Assembly: GCF_000688335.1 (NCBI RefSeq) | Contig: NZ_JHZX01000001.1 | Location: 682,001 to 746,000, forward strand | From: Sediminibacter sp. Hel_I_10 | GTDB taxonomy: Bacteria > Bacteroidota > Bacteroidia > Flavobacteriales > Flavobacteriaceae | Length of the DNA stretch: 64,000 bases | Direction of reading: 5' to 3' | Shown here: piece by piece, positions 1 through 7,206 of the stretch | Layout of the letters: the number at the start of each line of letters is the position of its first letter | Numbering within the stretch: the stretch's first letter is position 1 | Notes under the pieces: generated by a model | Database searches by the model: none | What the model was told of the DNA's origin: nothing | What the model saw: the letters and a program-made list of their open reading frames with translations, nothing else | Position numbers and translations under genes: made by a program

Positions 1-588
1 CTCGTCTTTTAATTTTTGCATGAGCGCAATGTTTTTCTGCTTTTCCTCCTCTAGCATTAATCGACCATATTCCGTATGGTAATGGTGATTTAATAAAAAG
101 TCAAAGTTTAATCGGTACCAATCGTGATCGGCAAATATGCAGTTCATGTGTGTTTTCCATTCTAAGCGTAGTAACTCATTTTTAAGAATGTACTCTTTAC
201 TTGATAAGTGAAATAGATCTGCATCACAGATGATACGTTCTAATTGGGTTTTGGGTCTTTGTGGCATTTGAGTGGCTTTGATACAATTCATAACCTCAGC
301 AATTAATTTAGGAGCATAACCCAACTCACTCAAAAAAAGATGCGCGTTATTCGCACTGATCTCTTCGTGACCGCTATAAGTAGATGAAATTCCTGTATCA
401 TGAAACAGTGCTGCTATTTCCAAGACTTCTGTTTCTTCTGCACTTAGTTTTTCATAATGAGCAATAGTTTGCACATTTTCAAACACCTCTAAGGTATGTT
501 GCACACTATGAAATGGTAAAACACTACACCTGCTCTGTGTCAATAACTTCTGACAATGTTCTTTTACTTCATTTATTATCGCACCCAT
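1..588 (-). CDS. HD-domain metal-dependent phosphohydrolase (3' end outside window)
   Basis: The reading frame is open from the ATG at 588 to the left edge (196 codons), so only the N-terminal part is visible. An HD signature is clear: HTLEVF near residue 36, LFHDTG with the paired His-Asp near residue 63, SGHEE near residue 78 and a later CDADL Asp near 125. These are the metal ligands of HD phosphohydrolases. The gene starts 5 nt after the stop of the PAP2 gene (594-1142) and is probably co-transcribed with it. In many Bacteroidota a similar HD region is followed by a transmembrane Pycsar-effector-like (DUF5706) segment; whether that is so here cannot be seen. Substrate unknown. Confidence 0.8.
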   Translation of the reverse strand, partial: MGAIINEVKEHCQKLLTQSRCSVLPFHSVQHTLEVFENVQTIAHYEKLSAEETEVLEIAALFHDTGISSTYSGHEEISANNAHLFLSELGYAPKLIAEVMNCIKATQMPQRPKTQLERIICDADLFHLSSKEYILKNELLRLEWKTHMNCIFADHDWYRLNFDFLLNHHYHTEYGRLMLEEEKQKNIALMQKLKDE

Positions 589-1213: not shown

Positions 1214-1248
1214 TAAATATAATATCTAAATCTAAAGCAAATTTAAAG
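1214..1248 (-). promoter_or_regulatory. Predicted promoter with response-regulator box (PAP2 gene)
   Basis: On the minus strand the box CTTTAAATTTGCTTTAGA (1231-1248) fits CTTTAA-N5-CTTTAGA and lies 9 bp upstream of a -7-like TATATTTA (1214-1221). The same box and spacing occur at 4161-4195, 4342-4376 and 6344-6378. The predicted start of transcription is near 1208, giving a leader of about 65 nt. An extra half-site reads TCTAAAG on the plus strand at 1170-1176. Confidence 0.6.
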
Positions 1249-1271
1249 CGACTATTTCGAATATAAAACAA

Positions 1272-2153
1272 TCACACCAAAACATTTAAAGCATTCTTCT
1301 TGATGGATATGGAAAGCGTAACATCTTTAATATTTGATAATTCACCATCCATTTGCGACTCAAAGACCTCTCCTTGCTGTCTAACTAACGTTAGCGATTT
1401 AGTTTGGTAGCACTTGACTTCTTTGAGAAGTTCAGGCTTTTTAAAAAGCATGAGACCTCCAAAAATGAGCATTTTCAGTTTATTTATTTTAGGAACTATT
1501 ACCACATCCAACAATCCATCTTGCAGAGATGCTTTTGGAGTTAGACTCATATGGTAGCCCATGACGTTTGAGTTGGAGACAAAAATTAAAAACGGATTTA
1601 AGACTTCTGTTTTACCATCAATAGCTATTAAAATTGAATCTTTTTTTGAGAATTGCTGAAACGATTTTAAAGATGCCTTAATATAGCACATCAAGGTTCT
1701 TTTCTGGAACGCTTCATAATTTCCAATAACGTTTGCTGTAAAACCAAACCCAGCATTACTGAAAAAATACCGCTGATTCACACAACCCACATCTATGGTT
1801 GTGATGTGATGATTTTTGATGATGTACAGTGCTTTTTTTATAGGCTTGGGAATACTTAGGTTGGCAGCTAAACCATTACCAGATCCAATAGGAATGATAC
1901 CCAAGGGAATGGTACTACCCACCATGGTAGATGCCACTTCATTAATGGTACCGTCCCCTCCACAAGCCACAATAACATCGGCCTTTTGAAGAATAGACTC
2001 ATTTGTGAGATCAATGGCATGCCCTTTATAGCCTGAAGATTTAATGGTAATGTTGTACCGATCTGCTTCAAAATAATCTTGAAGAAAAAGCTCTGAGAAA
2101 CTGTTTTTACCAGATCCAGCAATCGGGTTTACGATAAAGTGTATGTCTATCAC
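1272..2153 (-). CDS. Diacylglycerol kinase-family lipid kinase (YegS/BmrU/DgkB type)
   Basis: 293 aa, the usual length of soluble DAGK-catalytic-domain lipid kinases. The glycine-rich nucleotide site GGDGT is at residues 65-69, preceded by the N-terminal VNPIAGSGK block and followed by GSGNGLA at 90-96; SQMDGE near the C-terminus is also typical. It should phosphorylate diacylglycerol or a related lipid at the cytoplasmic membrane. Its ATG begins 1 nt after the stop of the LtaS-like transferase gene, so the two are tightly coupled. That pairing makes sense if the transferase leaves diacylglycerol behind. The exact lipid substrate is not shown by sequence. Confidence 0.88.
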   Translation of the reverse strand: MIDIHFIVNPIAGSGKNSFSELFLQDYFEADRYNITIKSSGYKGHAIDLTNESILQKADVIVACGGDGTINEVASTMVGSTIPLGIIPIGSGNGLAANLSIPKPIKKALYIIKNHHITTIDVGCVNQRYFFSNAGFGFTANVIGNYEAFQKRTLMCYIKASLKSFQQFSKKDSILIAIDGKTEVLNPFLIFVSNSNVMGYHMSLTPKASLQDGLLDVVIVPKINKLKMLIFGGLMLFKKPELLKEVKCYQTKSLTLVRQQGEVFESQMDGELSNIKDVTLSISIKKNALNVLV

Positions 2154-2154
2154 T

Positions 2155-4131
2155 TTATTCGCTCTTAATTTTTAAACCGCCATTATGGTACAAATTATCT
2201 GCGACCTCGTAGAAAGAGATGCTTCTTTTCTCAAAATCATCTTCAGAAGGAATAGCGCTCAAGCTATTATCCGAAGGGTTCCAAGAATAAAAATTGGCAT
2301 TTTTCTGTTCATCTAATATCATCACCTTACCCGCTTTTAAATACCCTAATTTTCTATAATTTCCTATAAATGCTCTTTCGTCTTGATGCTTCATTGTTAA
2401 AATATCCTCTCCAAAAAGATTCGATTTATAGTCCCAATGTAACGCTGAAAACAAAGTTGGAAACACGTCTATTTGAGACGCTAGTTTACTAATTTTTTCT
2501 GATTTGTGATTAGGTAAATTAAAAATTATTGCGGGAATATGATAATTATTAATGTCTAGTTCCCAACGTCCTGCACTTTTTGCACAATGATCACTCATGA
2601 TAACAAAAACGGTGTTGTCAAACCAAGGCTTACGCTGTGCTTTTTTTATGAATTCGCCGATGGCATGATCGGTATATTTAACCGCGCCATAGCGTCCAGT
2701 ACCCGAAGGCACATCAATTTGACCTTCAGGATAAGTATAGGGCTTATGGTTAGAAGTGGTCATAACGAAGTCAAAAAACGGTTGTCCCGTAGCGTGGGCT
2801 TTATCAGCTTCCTTAAGCAATTTATTGTAAATGTCCATATCGCAAACGCCCCAAGCATTCTCAAATGTGACCTCCTCATCCTCTATGTTAGTTCTAGTAG
2901 TAGTAATGCTTTGATCTAACAAGAACCCACGACCTCTATCGATTATGTTAAATCCATTACCTCCAAAATACGTATTCATATTATCAAAATAACCGTCTCC
3001 TCCGTAGAAAAAGTTACGCTCATACCCTTGTTGTTTAAAAACCTCTCCAATAGTAAATAAGCCTTGATTGTCTTTACGTTTCACAATACTTCGTCCAGGT
3101 GTTGGAGGAATCGATAATGTTACAGCTTCCATACCTCTTACCGTTCTTGTCCCAGTGGCATAAAGGTTTTCAAAAAACAGACTGTTATTGGCTAGAGAGT
3201 CTAAGGTTGGTGTTATCTTATGTGTACCGCCTAAAACTCCTAAAAAATCGGCGCTTAAACTTTCTACACAAATAAAAATAACATTGGGGGTTATGGGCTT
3301 TTCAATACTATCAGAATTTATGATGGTTCTATAAATAGCATTTTCGTTAGGATGTAAAAACGTAGATTTTGATTCTGAAAAACGCTCTTTGACCCGGGCA
3401 AAAGCCTCTTCTTTAGGAATGGTTTTATAAAATTCAATATAAGGTAATTCATTATTTCTAAAAGCTGAAAAGAAGGAGTAGATCCCCGATTTAGCGAGCT
3501 CATTATTATACCTGTTTTTAGAAAAATCGGCCTGTTGGTTTGTAACAAACAAAGCACTTATAACCACAATCGCAAACCAAGGCAAGGCTGCTATAGATTT
3601 AGATTTAAATGCCGTCTTACTCTTAAAGGTATCTGAAAAATATCCCAATCTGTAAATCATAGCAATACTAGCCAAAACCAGCAATAGCATACTTCCAACA
3701 AGGATAGGAAGTGGATAAGACTCATTGATGTTCTTTACAACTTCATAAGTGTAGATTAAATAATCTACAGAAATAAAATTAAACCGTCTTTGAAACTCAT
3801 CCCAAAATGTAATTTCTCCAAAAAAGGAAAAGAACATGATCAATACACCTATAGACAATCCTAAGTAAGTGACAAATCTATCGACAATTGAACCATTAAA
3901 ACGCTTAGGAAAAAGCAGCAAATAGATGATATACGGTATCGTAAAAAATGAAATGGTTGCCACATCAAATAAAAACCCGATAACGAAGGTGTTGCCTAAT
4001 ATAAAACCGCCTTTATCTACTTCGGAAAAATTCCAGATAAGAAAACACAATCTTACTAGAAAAGATAGTATTAAAAATAAGCAGACGTAAGCCTTTAATA
4101 CTGCAAAACGTGAAGGGAAAATTTTAGACAT
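2155..4131 (-). CDS. LtaS-like membrane phosphoalcohol transferase (sulfatase superfamily)
   Basis: 658 aa. About five membrane helices occupy residues 10-200, followed by a periplasmic alkaline-phosphatase/sulfatase domain from about 282. Metal and catalytic positions can be seen: Glu290 (FICVESLSAD), the nucleophile Thr330 in TGTRTVRG, and Asp514-His515 in MSDHC. Family members move glycerol-phosphate or phosphoethanolamine from a phospholipid to a glycolipid, glycan or lipid A, leaving diacylglycerol. First gene of an operon with the lipid kinase (1-nt gap). The promoter region 4132-4386 carries two copies of the cluster's regulatory box. Bacteroidota lack classical lipoteichoic acid, so the acceptor is open. 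Confidence 0.88.
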   Translation of the reverse strand: MSKIFPSRFAVLKAYVCLFLILSFLVRLCFLIWNFSEVDKGGFILGNTFVIGFLFDVATISFFTIPYIIYLLLFPKRFNGSIVDRFVTYLGLSIGVLIMFFSFFGEITFWDEFQRRFNFISVDYLIYTYEVVKNINESYPLPILVGSMLLLVLASIAMIYRLGYFSDTFKSKTAFKSKSIAALPWFAIVVISALFVTNQQADFSKNRYNNELAKSGIYSFFSAFRNNELPYIEFYKTIPKEEAFARVKERFSESKSTFLHPNENAIYRTIINSDSIEKPITPNVIFICVESLSADFLGVLGGTHKITPTLDSLANNSLFFENLYATGTRTVRGMEAVTLSIPPTPGRSIVKRKDNQGLFTIGEVFKQQGYERNFFYGGDGYFDNMNTYFGGNGFNIIDRGRGFLLDQSITTTRTNIEDEEVTFENAWGVCDMDIYNKLLKEADKAHATGQPFFDFVMTTSNHKPYTYPEGQIDVPSGTGRYGAVKYTDHAIGEFIKKAQRKPWFDNTVFVIMSDHCAKSAGRWELDINNYHIPAIIFNLPNHKSEKISKLASQIDVFPTLFSALHWDYKSNLFGEDILTMKHQDERAFIGNYRKLGYLKAGKVMILDEQKNANFYSWNPSDNSLSAIPSEDDFEKRSISFYEVADNLYHNGGLKIKSE

Positions 4132-4137
4132 TTACTA

Positions 4138-4195
4138 ATCAATTCAATGTTAATTGATGTCTAAAGTACACTATGATTCTAAAGACATCTTAAAG
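4138..4195 (-). promoter_or_regulatory. Predicted promoter with response-regulator box (LtaS-like operon)
   Basis: The box CTTTAAGATGTCTTTAGA (4178-4195, minus strand) lies 9 bp upstream of a -7-like TACTTTAG (4161-4168). This is the same layout as at 1214-1248 and 6344-6378. Transcription would start near 4155, giving a leader of about 24 nt. The leader contains a perfect 7-bp inverted repeat, ATCAATT...AATTGAT (4138-4158), ending just before the ATG. Confidence 0.6.
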
Positions 4196-4215
4196 TCTAG
4201 AAAGTACGGGTGACT

Positions 4216-4259
4216 TTAAAAAGAAAATGTCTAGACCTAAGGAAGATCTGGACATTTTC
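4216..4259 (-). terminator. Intrinsic terminator
   Basis: Nine-base-pair arms GAAAATGTC (4223-4231) and GACATTTTC (4251-4259) are extended inward by four more pairs, one a G-U. On the minus strand the hairpin is followed by CTTTTT. It would end transcripts of the sensor kinase gene (stop at 4387) and of the candidate small RNA. Confidence 0.7.
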
Positions 4260-4338
4260 ATCACATAACACTAATCAATCAATTTAAAAAAACCAATTCT
4301 CTCAAAAAAGTTTTATATCAATTTTTAAAAAGATGATA
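4216..4338 (-). ncRNA. Candidate small RNA downstream of the sensor kinase
   Basis: A predicted promoter with the shared box (4342-4376) points into a stretch with no convincing gene, which ends about 110-120 nt later at a strong hairpin plus T-run (4216-4259). A transcript from about 4336 to 4216 would be a short RNA controlled by the neighbouring response regulator. It shares the 3' end of the regulator/kinase operon. Alternatively the promoter simply adds a second start for the LtaS-like gene with read-through of the hairpin. Evidence is promoter plus terminator only; no conserved RNA family was recognised. Confidence 0.35.
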
Positions 4339-4341
4339 CCG

Positions 4342-4376
4342 CTAATGTAAATCTCAATTCTAAAGATGGTTTAAAG
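4342..4376 (-). promoter_or_regulatory. Predicted promoter with response-regulator box (no gene directly downstream)
   Basis: The box CTTTAAACCATCTTTAGA (4359-4376, minus strand) stands 9 bp upstream of a -7-like TACATTAG (4342-4349), the same geometry as the three other copies. It lies 11 bp beyond the end of the sensor kinase gene. It faces the terminator at 4216-4259 and then the LtaS-like gene. Confidence 0.5.
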
Positions 4377-4386
4377 CGGGACGTTA

Positions 4387-5646
4387 TTATTTAAGCTCTT
4401 TAGTAAAATCTATTGAGAATATGTGGTGATCTACTTCAAATTGATAAGAAATTTGAAAACCATATAAATCACATATTTTCTTTACAATAGCTAAGCCAAG
4501 ACCAGTTGAATGCTTGTCTTTGGATTCTCGGTAAAATCGTAAAAACAAATGTTCTGGATGCTCAAGCGCTTTTTCGCCAAAATTAGAAATGATCAATAAA
4601 TTACCTTTAGTGATAATCAGGATTTCTTCCATTTTCTTACTGTATCTAATAGCGTTGGAAACAAGATTATTTATCAGGATATCGGCAAGATAAGAATCCA
4701 TAGAAACAGTAACTTCCTGTTTTGAAGCGTAAACGAGATTGGCAAATTGCAATTCTTTAAAGCTTTCAATTTTCTCGTTAATTAAATCTGTAAGACTTAC
4801 CTCTTCAATATTTACAAACTGATTATTGTCAATTTTGGTAAGGGTCGTGATACGTTTATTGAGTTGCTTAAGACGTTGTATGTCTTTTTGAATTGAAGTG
4901 ATTTGCTCAAACTGCCTCTCATTGATATCATGCTCGTTGATGATATTATCTATTTTAGCTTGAATGATTGCCAATGGGGTTTGCATCTCATGGGATACAT
5001 CTTCAGTAAATTGCTTTAAGCTTTCGTAATCTGACCTCACTTTATTGGTAAGTACCGTAATTTCATTTTTTAATTCTGAAAATTCTAACACATCGCTATC
5101 CATTAGCGCCAAAGGTGCTTTAGAGGTTAACGAAAACCGCTTCATTTGATCCAAATTTTGAAAAAACGGTCTCCACAATTTCAGGTTTCTTGTCGTATTG
5201 AAATAGAACAACAGCAAAAAAGCTAGAATAAATATCGCAATGTTAGAAATAACGATGGCATAGAGAAAATTTTCTGTCTCCACGACCATATCCCTAATGG
5301 TGATTCTATAGATCTTACCATTAATGGTTTTATAGGTAGAAAGTTCTCTAAACAATTCCATCTCATCTTCAGAAGGATCATAGATGATGGTATCTTTAAT
5401 GATTTCTTCTCCCAGAACTTCTACTTCATGAACCTCTGTAACGGGTGGCAAAGAATACACCGTATTGTTTTTTTTCAAAGCACCCGCAACCCTATATTCC
5501 GTTGATCGTAAGACCTCTTCAATTTCATTTTCTAAGAGATCTCTTGTAAAAACATATAACACAATTGAACTCAATATCACCAAGAATACTCCTGTTAATA
5601 AAAAGGTCTTAGAGGCTTTTTTTACGAGATTTATTTTTTTTGTCAA
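4387..5646 (-). CDS. Two-component sensor histidine kinase
   Basis: 419 aa. Two membrane helices (about 16-34 and 129-149) enclose a periplasmic sensor of roughly 95 residues rich in acidic residues. The dimerisation/phosphoacceptor helix has the H-box SHEMQTPL with His219, followed by a HATPase domain with the N-box (NNLVSNAIRYS) and G-box (STGLGLAIVKKI). The response regulator gene lies immediately upstream, its stop 3 nt before this ATG. The acidic periplasmic loop would fit sensing of cations or cationic peptides, as in PmrB-like kinases, but that is inference. It probably controls the lipid-modification genes on either side. Confidence 0.93.
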   Translation of the reverse strand: MTKKINLVKKASKTFLLTGVFLVILSSIVLYVFTRDLLENEIEEVLRSTEYRVAGALKKNNTVYSLPPVTEVHEVEVLGEEIIKDTIIYDPSEDEMELFRELSTYKTINGKIYRITIRDMVVETENFLYAIVISNIAIFILAFLLLFYFNTTRNLKLWRPFFQNLDQMKRFSLTSKAPLALMDSDVLEFSELKNEITVLTNKVRSDYESLKQFTEDVSHEMQTPLAIIQAKIDNIINEHDINERQFEQITSIQKDIQRLKQLNKRITTLTKIDNNQFVNIEEVSLTDLINEKIESFKELQFANLVYASKQEVTVSMDSYLADILINNLVSNAIRYSKKMEEILIITKGNLLIISNFGEKALEHPEHLFLRFYRESKDKHSTGLGLAIVKKICDLYGFQISYQFEVDHHIFSIDFTKELK

Positions 5647-5649
5647 TGG

Positions 5650-6324
5650 TCAATCTTCTATAAATTTATAGCCGCTCCCGTAAGCGGTCTTAATATACTT
5701 TGCGCCTTGTGATGTCATTTTTTTTCTAAGATTATTGATGTGCACATAAATAAAATCAAAATTATCCAGCAAATCACTATCATCTCCCCACAAGTGCTCT
5801 GCAATAATCTCTTTAGAAAGCACGCGCCCCTTATTTGAAATAAAAAACAGCAACAAATCATATTCTTTTCGGGTTAGGGCCATGGTGTTCCCTTCAATAT
5901 AAGCGGTTCTCGCTTTTGTGTCAATTCGTATTTCATTAAACACGATGATTTCATCTCCCCCGTACTTTCCGCGTCGCAATACGGCATTAATACGAGAACT
6001 CAGTTCTGCCAAATGAAAAGGTTTTGTGATGTAATCATCTGCACCTAAATCTAAACCCTCCAACCTATCGGTAAGCGAATTGTTTGCCGAAATTATGATC
6101 ACCCCTGCCTTTTTCTTGTCTTTCTTTAAAGTCTTCAGAACATCTAAACCACTACCCGATACCAAATTGATATCTAAAATAATGATATCATAATCATAAA
6201 GCGCTACTTTCTCTGAAGCCTCGAGATAATCTGAGGCAACCTCGCAAACATGGTCATCACGCTTTAAGTAGGTTACGATAGATTGTTGTAAATCTAATTC
6301 ATCTTCGGCTATTAGCATTTTCAT
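5650..6324 (-). CDS. OmpR/PhoB-family response regulator
   Basis: 224 aa. Receiver domain with acidic pocket (EDE at 7-9), phosphoacceptor Asp51 (IIILDINL), Ser79 and Lys101 (YITKPF). A C-terminal winged-helix domain follows, with ALTRKEYDLL and the YVHINNLRKK recognition-helix region and TAYGSGYKF wing. First gene of the operon with the kinase at 4387-5646. The 11-bp-period direct repeat at 6361-6378, just upstream of its own predicted -7 element, suggests autoregulation. The same repeat sits before the LtaS-like operon and the secreted PAP2 gene. It is the natural candidate to bind it, because OmpR-family dimers use direct half-sites one helical turn apart. Confidence 0.94.
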   Translation of the reverse strand: MKMLIAEDELDLQQSIVTYLKRDDHVCEVASDYLEASEKVALYDYDIIILDINLVSGSGLDVLKTLKKDKKKAGVIIISANNSLTDRLEGLDLGADDYITKPFHLAELSSRINAVLRRGKYGGDEIIVFNEIRIDTKARTAYIEGNTMALTRKEYDLLLFFISNKGRVLSKEIIAEHLWGDDSDLLDNFDFIYVHINNLRKKMTSQGAKYIKTAYGSGYKFIED

Positions 6325-6343
6325 ACCTATAAATTTAAAGCAA

Positions 6344-6378
6344 TAAAAATAGTATTCGATTCTAAAGTAATATTAAAG
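6344..6378 (-). promoter_or_regulatory. Predicted promoter with response-regulator box (two-component operon)
   Basis: The box CTTTAATATTACTTTAGA (6361-6378, minus strand) is 9 bp upstream of a -7-like TATTTTTA (6344-6351). Transcription would start near 6338, 14 nt before the regulator's ATG. The region also lies upstream of the divergent PAP2 gene (ATG 6478), which has a separate plus-strand -7 candidate TATTTTTG at 6429-6436. Confidence 0.6.
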
Positions 6379-6477
6379 TGAACTTTGTGGTTTCATCACA
6401 GATTTATATTTAATTAAGAATTCTACCCTATTTTTGAAAAGCAAAACAATCTTGATCATTGACCCTAGCTTTAGAGT

Positions 6478-7206
6478 ATGCAAAAAGAACTTAAAATTAT
6501 AATTAATAAATGCAGAGAATTACTATCCCGTATTTTTGTTAGGTACGATAAACAATGGCCCTACATTATCACCTCAGCCATAGCACTGTTAATTGTAGTT
6601 GGTGGTATCAAACTCTTTATAAAGCTTACCGAAAATTTAAAGACCGACGTCCTGGCTCAATACGATACCAATATTACAGACTATATCATCTCTCACAGAT
6701 CACCAGCGCTAACGCAATATTTAGTTTTTGTAACTAATGTAGGCGATGTGTACGGCTATCTTATTGTTTTTCCGTTATGCTCACTCGCCTTTTACCTTAT
6801 TTTCAAAAGCTGGAATTACGTTTTACAATTAAGTTTAGTAATGGTATTGGCCTTAAGTTCTAACATTCTTCTAAAAGACGTCATTAACCGATCTAGACCA
6901 GAGCTAGAACATTTGGTAACTGTAGAGACCTTGAGCTATCCTAGTGGGCACGCCATGACCGCCATGGCCTTTTACGGGTTTTTAATATATCTCTTCTACC
7001 GTTTTAGGATCAATTTATTCTCTAAATGTATTGGTATTGTACTGTTAACCATTCTCATCTTTAGTATTGGCCTTAGCCGTATTTATCTTGGCGTACACTT
7101 CCCTTCAGATATTGTTGGAGGTTTTATTGCCGGTTTTATTTGGGTTGTGTTTTGTGCGCTCATTTTTAATATTATTAGAGCCTTTAGACGAGATCCCAGT
7201 ACCTAA
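6478..7206 (+). CDS. Integral-membrane PAP2-family phosphatase
   Basis: 242 aa with about six membrane helices. PAP2 motifs in order: KDVINRSRP (Lys133 to Pro141), PSGH (155-158) with catalytic His158, and SRIYLGVHFPSD (200-211) with His207 and Asp211. Family members remove phosphate from undecaprenyl pyrophosphate, phosphatidate or lipid A at the outer face of the inner membrane. It is divergent from the two-component operon and shares its upstream region. It is the second PAP2 enzyme in 6 kb and differs from the first in being a multi-helix membrane protein. Specific substrate not determinable here. Confidence 0.9.
   Translation: MQKELKIIINKCRELLSRIFVRYDKQWPYIITSAIALLIVVGGIKLFIKLTENLKTDVLAQYDTNITDYIISHRSPALTQYLVFVTNVGDVYGYLIVFPLCSLAFYLIFKSWNYVLQLSLVMVLALSSNILLKDVINRSRPELEHLVTVETLSYPSGHAMTAMAFYGFLIYLFYRFRINLFSKCIGIVLLTILIFSIGLSRIYLGVHFPSDIVGGFIAGFIWVVFCALIFNIIRAFRRDPST

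What the first reader, a model, noticed from the sequence alone, without database searches (positions are those of the whole stretch)
1214..6378. Four identical two-half-site boxes mark a putative response-regulator regulon
On the minus strand CTTTAA-N5-CTTTAGA occurs at 1231-1248, 4178-4195, 4359-4376 and 6361-6378. All four match at 13 fixed bases and have 11-bp half-site period. Each lies exactly 9 bp upstream of a -7-like element (TATATTTA, TACTTTAG, TACATTAG, TATTTTTA). Three precede genes: secreted PAP2, LtaS-like transferase plus lipid kinase, and the two-component operon itself. One precedes no gene. A direct repeat at one-turn spacing next to an OmpR-type regulator gene, including its own promoter, is the classical picture of its binding site.
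Basis: partly seen in the sequence, partly recalled or inferred. Interest (0 to 1): 0.75.

Follow-up and report, generated by a model that had tools for sequence, protein, structure and literature searches.

The report
Portable envelope-remodelling regulon with its operator
Four (really five) copies of a short DNA box mark the promoters most likely switched by a neighbouring two-component regulator that seems to remodel the outer membrane of flavobacteria, and the same box sits at the same kinds of genes in most genomes that carry this regulator.

Summary
All four boxes (CTTTAA-N5-CTTTAGA, minus strand) are present, each exactly 9 nt before a TAnnTT -7 element. The 4.1-Mb genome holds one other perfect 13-base box, inside a coding gene, without a -7.

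The box tracks the regulator. In 397 family genomes box plus -7 occurs 34 times in 20 genomes (reversed control: 1 match); 17 of the 20 are among the 28 genomes with a close orthologue of the response regulator, and an 18th has it cut by a contig end. Boxes stand before first genes (LtaS-like 11/11, PepSY-like 11/13, TolC 7/8, outer-membrane barrel 8/10) and before 0/75 genes inside operons.

The genes (LtaS-like transferase, lipid kinase, PAP2 phosphatases; in relatives ArnC/ArnT-like enzymes and RND efflux) point to envelope, perhaps lipid A, remodelling, as PmrAB or ColRS do in Proteobacteria.

Additions: a fifth, degenerate box serves the divergent PAP2 gene (6402-6419 +); the "gene-less" box looks like the surviving promoter of a deleted PepSY-like gene. 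Binding, activation and signal are untested.

The parts
6361..6378 (-). Box 1 CTTTAATATTACTTTAGA, promoter of the regulator-kinase operon (36 nt before the ATG); -7 TATTTTTA at 6344-6351
4359..4376 (-). Box 2 CTTTAAACCATCTTTAGA with -7 TACATTAG at 4342-4349; no gene of its own follows; likely surviving promoter of a deleted PepSY-like gene
4178..4195 (-). Box 3 CTTTAAGATGTCTTTAGA, promoter of the LtaS-like/lipid-kinase operon (46 nt before the ATG); -7 TACTTTAG at 4161-4168
   Evidence: box at 11 of 11 orthologous LtaS-like promoters, own included
1231..1248 (-). Box 4 CTTTAAATTTGCTTTAGA, promoter of the PAP2/HD operon (88 nt before the ATG); -7 TATATTTA at 1214-1221
6402..6419 (+).
   Evidence: matrix score 18.8; best of eight shuffles 10.3; boxes also before two orthologues, L205 and L040
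5650..6324 (-). OmpR/PhoB-family response regulator, 224 aa; Asp51, Lys101; recognition helix FIYVHINNLRKK
4387..5646 (-). Sensor histidine kinase, 419 aa, above the cut-off of NCBIfam's PorY-family model
2155..4131 (-). LtaS-like transferase of the sulfatase superfamily, 658 aa
1272..2153 (-). YegS/DagK-type lipid kinase, 293 aa
594..1142 (-). Secreted-looking PAP2-family phosphatase, 182 aa, weakly LpxE-like (40.9 bits against a cut-off of 177)
1..588 (-). HD-domain protein (runs past the window's start), probable second gene of the PAP2 operon (5-nt gap)
6478..7206 (+). Membrane PAP2-family protein, 242 aa, divergent from the regulator operon
4223..4259 (-). Hairpin followed by five U between boxes 2 and 3; aligns with the hairpin behind the PepSY-like gene of relative L207; would end a ~120-nt RNA started at box 2 (start inferred)
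   Evidence: the strict terminator scan did not call it

Best explanation
The box is the operator of the OmpR/PhoB-type response regulator encoded at 5650-6324. On an unknown envelope signal the neighbouring kinase phosphorylates the regulator; two DNA-binding domains bind head-to-tail to CTTTAA and CTTTAGA, 11 bp apart, at about -39 to -22, where the -33 promoter element would lie, and recruit sigma-A polymerase to the TAnnTT(TG) -7 element at a fixed 9-nt distance. This switches on a small local regulon: the regulator operon, an LtaS-like head-group transferase with a kinase that would recycle its diacylglycerol, and two PAP2 phosphatases (one through a weak divergent box), to remodel the outer membrane. 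The fourth promoter lost its PepSY-like gene and now at most makes a ~120-nt terminated RNA. Shown by computation: box and -7 geometry, rarity, conservation at orthologous promoters, co-occurrence with the regulator. Inferred: binding, activation rather than repression, the chemistry of remodelling, and the signal.
For: Perfect box: 4 in the window against 0.01 expected, 1 elsewhere in the genome and that one coding. Box plus -7 in 397 family genomes: 34 matches in 20 genomes, reversed control 1; 17 of 20 are among the 28 regulator-positive genomes, and an 18th (G333) has an 81%-identical regulator cut by a contig end. In 59 chosen genomes, without mismatch: 32 matches in 17 of 29 regulator-positive genomes, 0 in 30 others; at up to one mismatch 89 against 19. 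(28 loci, at most 2 of 17 positions off): LtaS-like 11/11, PepSY-like 11/13 (the two missed have a box inside an over-long predicted start), TolC 7/8, barrel 8/10; genes inside operons HK 0/28, DagK 0/11, RND 0/7, MFP 0/8, HD 0/10, ArnT 0/7, LAB_N 0/4; other genes 4/194, two of them shortened copies of the barrel gene. A perfect TAnnTT at gap 9 for 62 of 74 boxes that were chosen by the box alone. In G160 an unlinked perfect box precedes a TolC-MFP-RND operon. Recognition helix VH(I/V)NNLR in all orthologues of 68% identity or more. BasR/PmrA are among the closest solved regulators, and A. baumannii PmrA binds TTTAAG-N5-TTTAAG (PMC10927774, passages).
Against: No binding, expression or phenotype data. 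G404 has a perfect box plus -7 before a PAP2 gene but no close orthologue of the regulator. 11 of the 28 regulator-positive genomes have no perfect box plus -7; two regulator-positive genomes, G009 and G152, have none even at one mismatch, and G009's perfect box before its PAP2 gene lacks a proper -7. Of three perfect sites far from the regulator, only G160's sits directly before a known target family; G073's precedes an unidentified 344-aa frame inside a cluster with PepSY-, PAP2- and LtaS-like genes, and no target was recognised behind G061's. Sites of one cluster and of related genomes share ancestry, so counts are not independent events. The split into first and inner genes was mine, made after seeing the maps. 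The LtaS-like protein hits no EptA model, so lipid A as its substrate is a guess.
Confidence: 0.88

Rival explanations
1. The box is part of a specialised core promoter, read by an alternative sigma factor or a sigma-A variant, and the two-component system merely lies among genes of that class.
For: The box-to--7 distance is fixed at 9 nt (62 of 74) and the box covers the -33 region.
Against: A sigma factor's promoters would be expected scattered and independent of this regulator; here they cluster around it and follow its presence. The box is a tandem repeat at 11 bp, typical of OmpR/PhoB dimers, and the -7 is the normal sigma-A element (TAnnTTTG at -12 to -5 in F. psychrophilum, PMC9723704, passages).
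Confidence: 0.05
2. The box is bound by another OmpR-family regulator of the cell, not by the neighbour.
For: Such regulators are many (21 to 46 first-look candidates in genomes of the genus), and G404 has one box without the orthologue.
Against: 18 of 20 box genomes carry this regulator (one of them as a contig-end fragment), while only 28 of 397 genomes have it at the threshold used.
Confidence: 0.05
3. The four boxes are only a duplicated promoter fragment spread by recombination, without regulatory meaning.
For: Tandem box-gene units occur in relatives (L147, L145).
Against: Outside box, W-T-Y and -7 the columns of 70 sites carry little information, and the four spacers in the window differ: selection rather than copying.
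Confidence: 0.02
4. Box 2 drives a functional small RNA of about 120 nt rather than being only the relic of a PepSY-like gene.
For: Perfect box, -7, and a stable hairpin with U-run (z -4.8) about 80 nt on.
Against: In close relatives L144 and L207 the stretch between kinase and LtaS-like gene holds a PepSY-like gene ending in such a hairpin; the hairpin region aligns with that of L207 (score 47, 0 of 200 shuffles as good), less with L210 (4 of 200) and not significantly with L144 (27 of 200). No Rfam family at gathering score. No other genome of the genus has the LtaS-like gene, so conservation of an RNA could not be tested there.
Confidence: 0.15

Closest known systems
PmrA/BasR (PmrAB) regulon of Enterobacteria and Acinetobacter
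   Same: OmpR/PhoB regulator; hexamer direct repeat with 5-bp gap (TTTAAG-N5-TTTAAG in A. baumannii, PMC10927774, passages); recognition helix VHIHNLR against VHINNLR; envelope-modifying targets
   Different: Scores 155.5 against a PmrA model cut-off of 330; half-sites CTTTAA/CTTTAGA; Bacteroidota -7 element; LtaS-like transferase without an EptA model hit; barrel, PepSY-like and RND genes in relatives
ColRS / RaxRH lipid A remodelling regulons of Pseudomonas and Xanthomonas (PMC8306577, passages)
   Same: Regulator-kinase pair next to a phospho-head-group transferase, with a divergent PAP2/LpxE-type gene beside the pair and, in some relatives here, an ArnT-like gene
   Different: Other phylum, transferase family and kinase; metal response not shown here; ColR's own box was not compared
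PorXY of Porphyromonas
   Same: The kinase passes NCBIfam's PorY-family model (401.3 against 350 bits)
   Different: The regulator here has an OmpR-type DNA-binding domain and lies next to its kinase; that PorX lacks such a domain and lies apart from porY is recalled, not tested

Membership tests
OmpR/PhoB response regulators | Receiver plus winged-helix Trans_reg_C domain | tested here: met
   PF00072 and PF00486 above cut-off
OmpR/PhoB response regulators | Phospho-acceptor Asp and switch Lys in the receiver | tested here: met
   Asp51 and Lys101 located; their roles by analogy
OmpR/PhoB response regulators | Tandem half-sites about one helical turn apart upstream of the -7/-10 | tested here: met
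   (sequence only)
OmpR/PhoB response regulators | Phosphorylation-dependent binding of the site | not testable with these tools
   needs purified protein
PmrA (BasR) | Score above the NCBIfam PmrA equivalog cut-off | tested here: not met
   155.5 against 330 bits
PmrA (BasR) | Operator HTTAAD-N5-HTTAAD | tested here: not met
   same geometry, but the window's second half-sites are all CTTTAGA, one base off in the best frame; motif from PMC10927774
ColRS/RaxRH lipid A regulon | EptA-family phosphoethanolamine transferase under control | tested here: not met
   sulfatase/LtaS-like; nearest solved chain 3lxq (uncharacterised VP1736), then LtaS; no EptA model among the hits
ColRS/RaxRH lipid A regulon | PAP2/LpxE-type phosphatase next to the pair | tested here: met
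   PAP2 domain certain in P0005 and P0006; LpxE model only weak for P0005, 40.9 against 177 bits
ColRS/RaxRH lipid A regulon | Metal-responsive kinase with periplasmic ExxE | tested here: inconclusive
   many of the kinases read there carry an ExxE after the first membrane helix, but a paralogue (L163_2) has one too; read by eye
PorY-type histidine kinases | Score above NF052314 cut-off | tested here: met
   401.3 against 350
PorXY system | Control of type IX secretion genes | not tested
   none stood out among the families named, but no search for such genes was made

The most novel reading that the evidence does not exclude
This is a portable, self-contained regulon of Flavobacteriaceae, a counterpart of PmrAB/ColRS that moves between genera as one block: regulator, kinase, operators and targets together. 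In a deeper branch operator and recognition helix seem to have changed together: first half-site CTTTAG instead of CTTTAA, and Val194 to Thr, Asn197 to Arg/Gly, at positions that match base-contacting Val192 and His195 of Klebsiella PmrA. That would make it a natural test case for how OmpR-type regulators change specificity.
Probability: 0.4. Interest if true: 0.65.

Novelty: new member of a known kind. Interest (0 to 1): 0.52.

Why it matters
The listings of my ten paper searches named few Bacteroidota response regulators with known targets (RprY and PorX of Porphyromonas, seen as listings only). This gives a sharply defined operator, its position on the flavobacterial promoter and a list of likely targets for a regulator found in 25 of 237 sampled genera, so binding, activation geometry and signal can be tested at once. 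If the targets do remodel lipid A, it shows that Flavobacteriaceae have their own regulated envelope programme built like PmrAB/ColRS, and one that appears to pass between genera.

Tried and rejected
Chance: rejected. Genome-scattered regulon: rejected for this genome, where the extended pattern at up to 3 mismatches is no more frequent than its reversed control (21 against 24) and only the four sites stand out. PepSY or barrel remnant by protein similarity in the 259 bp around boxes 2 and 3: nothing better than E 0.13, and no PepSY-like protein in the genome with one query (the tool warns that an empty answer without a positive control shows nothing). Leader of box 2 against the leaders of relatives: not above shuffles (ten comparisons in all, of which L207 tail 0 and L210 tail 4 of 200 shuffles were as good). 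Rfam for the hairpin: only sub-threshold hits. Sigma-70 promoter and strict terminator scan of 4100-4500: none. A periplasmic ExxE metal motif as a signal clue: present but not specific. Foreign base composition of the island: none (34.9 against 36.1% GC). Protein scan of genome contigs: of 80 loci the six nearest (L036-L041, 50-75% identity) were used, L040 and L036 most; the other 74 were not. In some searches the six deeper-branch loci (L166-L171) were left out (L036 of that branch was in), and L147 was dropped as a part of L205; the 28 loci come from 25 genomes or records, regulator genes of two genomes were counted twice (L202/L203, L204/L219), and regulator and kinase rows include paralogues (L163, L207). 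Papers opened for passages but not used for a claim: PMC2681069, PMC2904496, PMC10197871.
Full report
What was checked. The four boxes were read directly and re-found by pattern search. For the exact 13-base box the window has 4 matches against 0.01 expected from 100 shuffles. At one mismatch the bare box is not enriched (41 against 35 for the reversed control), so the evidence rests on the full box with its -7. Each box is followed by exactly 9 nt and a TAnnTT element. That the organism is one of the Flavobacteriaceae is inferred from its named relatives (Nonlabens antarcticus and Flavobacteriaceae metagenome genomes).

Orthologous loci. A search of 397 genomes of the family with the regulator protein gave 28 genomes, the own one included, with a close orthologue (E at most 1e-78, 56-100% identity, 25 of 237 genera). 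The regions around them were fetched, with one more genome of the same genus (G009) and named relatives. Boxes recur just before the regulator, just behind the kinase, before the LtaS-like gene and before the PAP2 gene. One search examined 28 loci from 25 genomes or records (six deeper-branch loci left out; two genomes contribute their regulator twice), scoring box plus -7. With at most 2 of 17 positions off, boxes stand before 11 of 11 LtaS-like, 11 of 13 PepSY-like, 7 of 8 TolC and 8 of 10 outer-membrane barrel genes, 13 of 27 PAP2 genes (some of them second genes of operons or paralogues), 2 of 3 divergent PAP2 genes, 3 of 6 ArnC-like, 2 of 5 DUF347, 2 of 4 epimerase and 19 of 30 regulator genes. 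The two PepSY-like genes without a box there have one inside an over-long predicted start (L203, L205). Before genes that lie inside operons (HK, DagK, RND, MFP, HD, ArnT, LAB_N) it is 0 of 75. Among all other genes it is 4 of 194; two of the four are shortened copies of the barrel gene. A Fisher test of four first-gene families (37 of 42) against the inner genes (0 of 75) gives 2e-25; the grouping was mine, made after the maps were seen, and orthologous sites are not independent.

Presence of box and regulator. The box with W-T and -7, no mismatch, occurs 34 times in 20 of the 397 genomes; the reversed pattern occurs once. 17 of the 20 belong to the 28 regulator genomes (hypergeometric 7.5e-20); 11 of the 28 have no such site. 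Of the remaining three, G333 has the regulator cut by a contig end (81% identity over residues 1-101), G217's match is inside a 740-aa reading frame and it has no regulator hit at E 1e-25, and G404's box lies 263 nt before a PAP2 reading frame in a genome whose best regulator hit is 33% identical. G404 is unexplained: a regulator lost, or another regulator. In 59 chosen genomes, 29 with and 30 without the orthologue, there are 32 zero-mismatch matches in 17 of the 29 and none in the 30; at up to one mismatch 89 against 19 (the 19 in 11 of 30 genomes; reversed control 24 in all 59). G009 and G152 have the regulator but no match; G009's perfect box before its PAP2 gene has no proper -7. Three of the 32 sites lie away from the regulator: G160's precedes a TolC-MFP-RND operon; G073's precedes an unidentified 344-aa frame in a cluster with PepSY-, PAP2- and LtaS-like genes, where the PepSY-like gene has a near-perfect box of its own; behind G061's no target family was recognised.

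Anatomy of the promoter. 70 distinct sites were chosen by box (at most 1 mismatch) and -7 (at most 1), so those columns are conserved by choice; not chosen, yet strongly conserved, are W19 T20 Y21 right behind the box, and the other flanks are close to background. For 74 boxes chosen by the box alone, a perfect TAnnTT stands at gap 9 in 62. In F. psychrophilum the sigma-A element TAnnTTTG lies at -12 to -5 (PMC9723704, passages read); by that ruler the box covers -39 to -22, the place of the -33 element. That is the position of an activator that replaces a weak -33 contact; activation is inferred from this.

A fifth site. A matrix built from 85 sites of relatives, without the window's own, ranks the four sites first (28.4 to 35.9) and then 6402-6437 on the + strand (18.8), against a best score of 10.3 in eight shuffled windows and a next real score of 12.2. 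It sits before the divergent PAP2 gene (6478-7206), and orthologues of that gene in L205 and L040 have boxes there. Regulator and PAP2 gene thus probably share a two-way control region.

The gene-less box. In L144 and L207, close relatives by regulator identity (89 and 88%), the stretch between kinase and LtaS-like gene holds a PepSY-like gene with its own box and a hairpin behind it. In the window the gene is missing; box, -7 and hairpin remain. The hairpin region aligns with that of L207 above all 200 shuffles, with L210 above all but 4, but not significantly with L144 (27 of 200 as good), and the leader does not align above chance (ten comparisons). The hairpin is stable (z -4.8), but a strict terminator scan did not list it. 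The likeliest story is deletion of the gene, leaving an orphan promoter that could make a ~120-nt RNA; a functional small RNA is possible but not supported. L207 itself shows a shortened barrel gene behind another box, so cargo genes seem to decay elsewhere too.

What the regulon does. In the window: LtaS-like transferase, YegS-type lipid kinase, two PAP2 proteins and an HD-domain protein. Transferases of this kind take a head group from a phospholipid and leave diacylglycerol, which a kinase can return to phospholipid synthesis (established knowledge of LtaS/OpgB-type and DagK enzymes, from recall). In relatives the same box precedes PepSY-like proteins, a TolC/adaptor/RND pump, an outer-membrane barrel protein, a DUF347 membrane protein, an epimerase, and an operon of an ArnC-like glycosyltransferase, a protein with the lipid-A-biosynthesis N-terminal domain and an ArnT-like transferase. 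The NCBIfam names are all below their curated cut-offs, so substrates stay open; but the set as a whole says envelope, perhaps lipid A, remodelling. ColRS/RaxRH neighbourhoods (eptA, lpxE, arnT) are the nearest parallel (PMC8306577, passages read).

The regulator. Receiver and winged-helix domains, Asp51 and Lys101 are present. The nearest solved chains are DrrD (3.6e-37) and BasR/PmrA (2e-36); the PmrA helix VHIHNLR matches VHINNLR here. In Klebsiella PmrA, Asn188 and Asn196 make base-specific contacts, and Thr187, Val192 and His195 contact bases hydrophobically (PMC4660055, passages read). By the alignment Asn196 corresponds to Asn198 here, conserved in all orthologues. In the deeper branch (55-59% identity) Val194 is Thr and Asn197 is Arg or Gly, and the first half-site is mostly CTTTAG: 8 of 9 perfect sites against 4 of 35 in the main branch (Fisher 2e-5; the CTTTAA form was sought in 397 genomes and the CTTTAG form in 59, sister genomes are not independent, and G061 breaks the rule).

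Movement. Within the genus (23 genomes) the LtaS-like gene is in the own genome only, and the close regulator in two; a third genome, G021, has a 49%-identical regulator. In trees of regulator and kinase the window's proteins group with six other genera (100/100 in both). In the kinase tree the same-genus G009 groups with G371 and G173 (100/99); in the regulator tree its place is unresolved but outside the window's group. The island is therefore probably not inherited within the genus by simple descent. Base composition does not differ.

Literature. Ten full-text searches listed no paper that, by title and start of abstract, describes this regulator or box in Flavobacteriaceae; the listings were capped at 6-20 papers each and the library lacks most subscription journals, so this is weak evidence of novelty. 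Papers were seen as passages or listings only.

Noticed in passing
   Followed up: yes
G404:C53:449340-449372, locus L241: Perfect box plus -7 upstream of a PAP2 gene in a genome with no close orthologue of the regulator.
   Followed up: partly
L207 10641-11204 (same place in L145): Shortened outer-membrane-barrel gene (187 aa) still carrying its own perfect box: cargo decay inside the regulon.
   Followed up: partly
L205 / L147 (G132): Two PepSY-like genes and a PAP2 gene with boxes 638 bp apart each, suggesting duplication of box-gene units.
   Followed up: no
L163 (G152): A second, 51%-identical regulator with its kinase lies next to the orthologue, with PAP2 and HD genes close by; the orthologue's reading frame holds one TAG stop.
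   Followed up: no
L264 (G348), 659-1312: In the deeper branch, boxes stand before a 109-aa secreted-looking small protein, and others upstream of a gene that looks like DNA gyrase subunit B (by eye, from its first residues).
   Followed up: no
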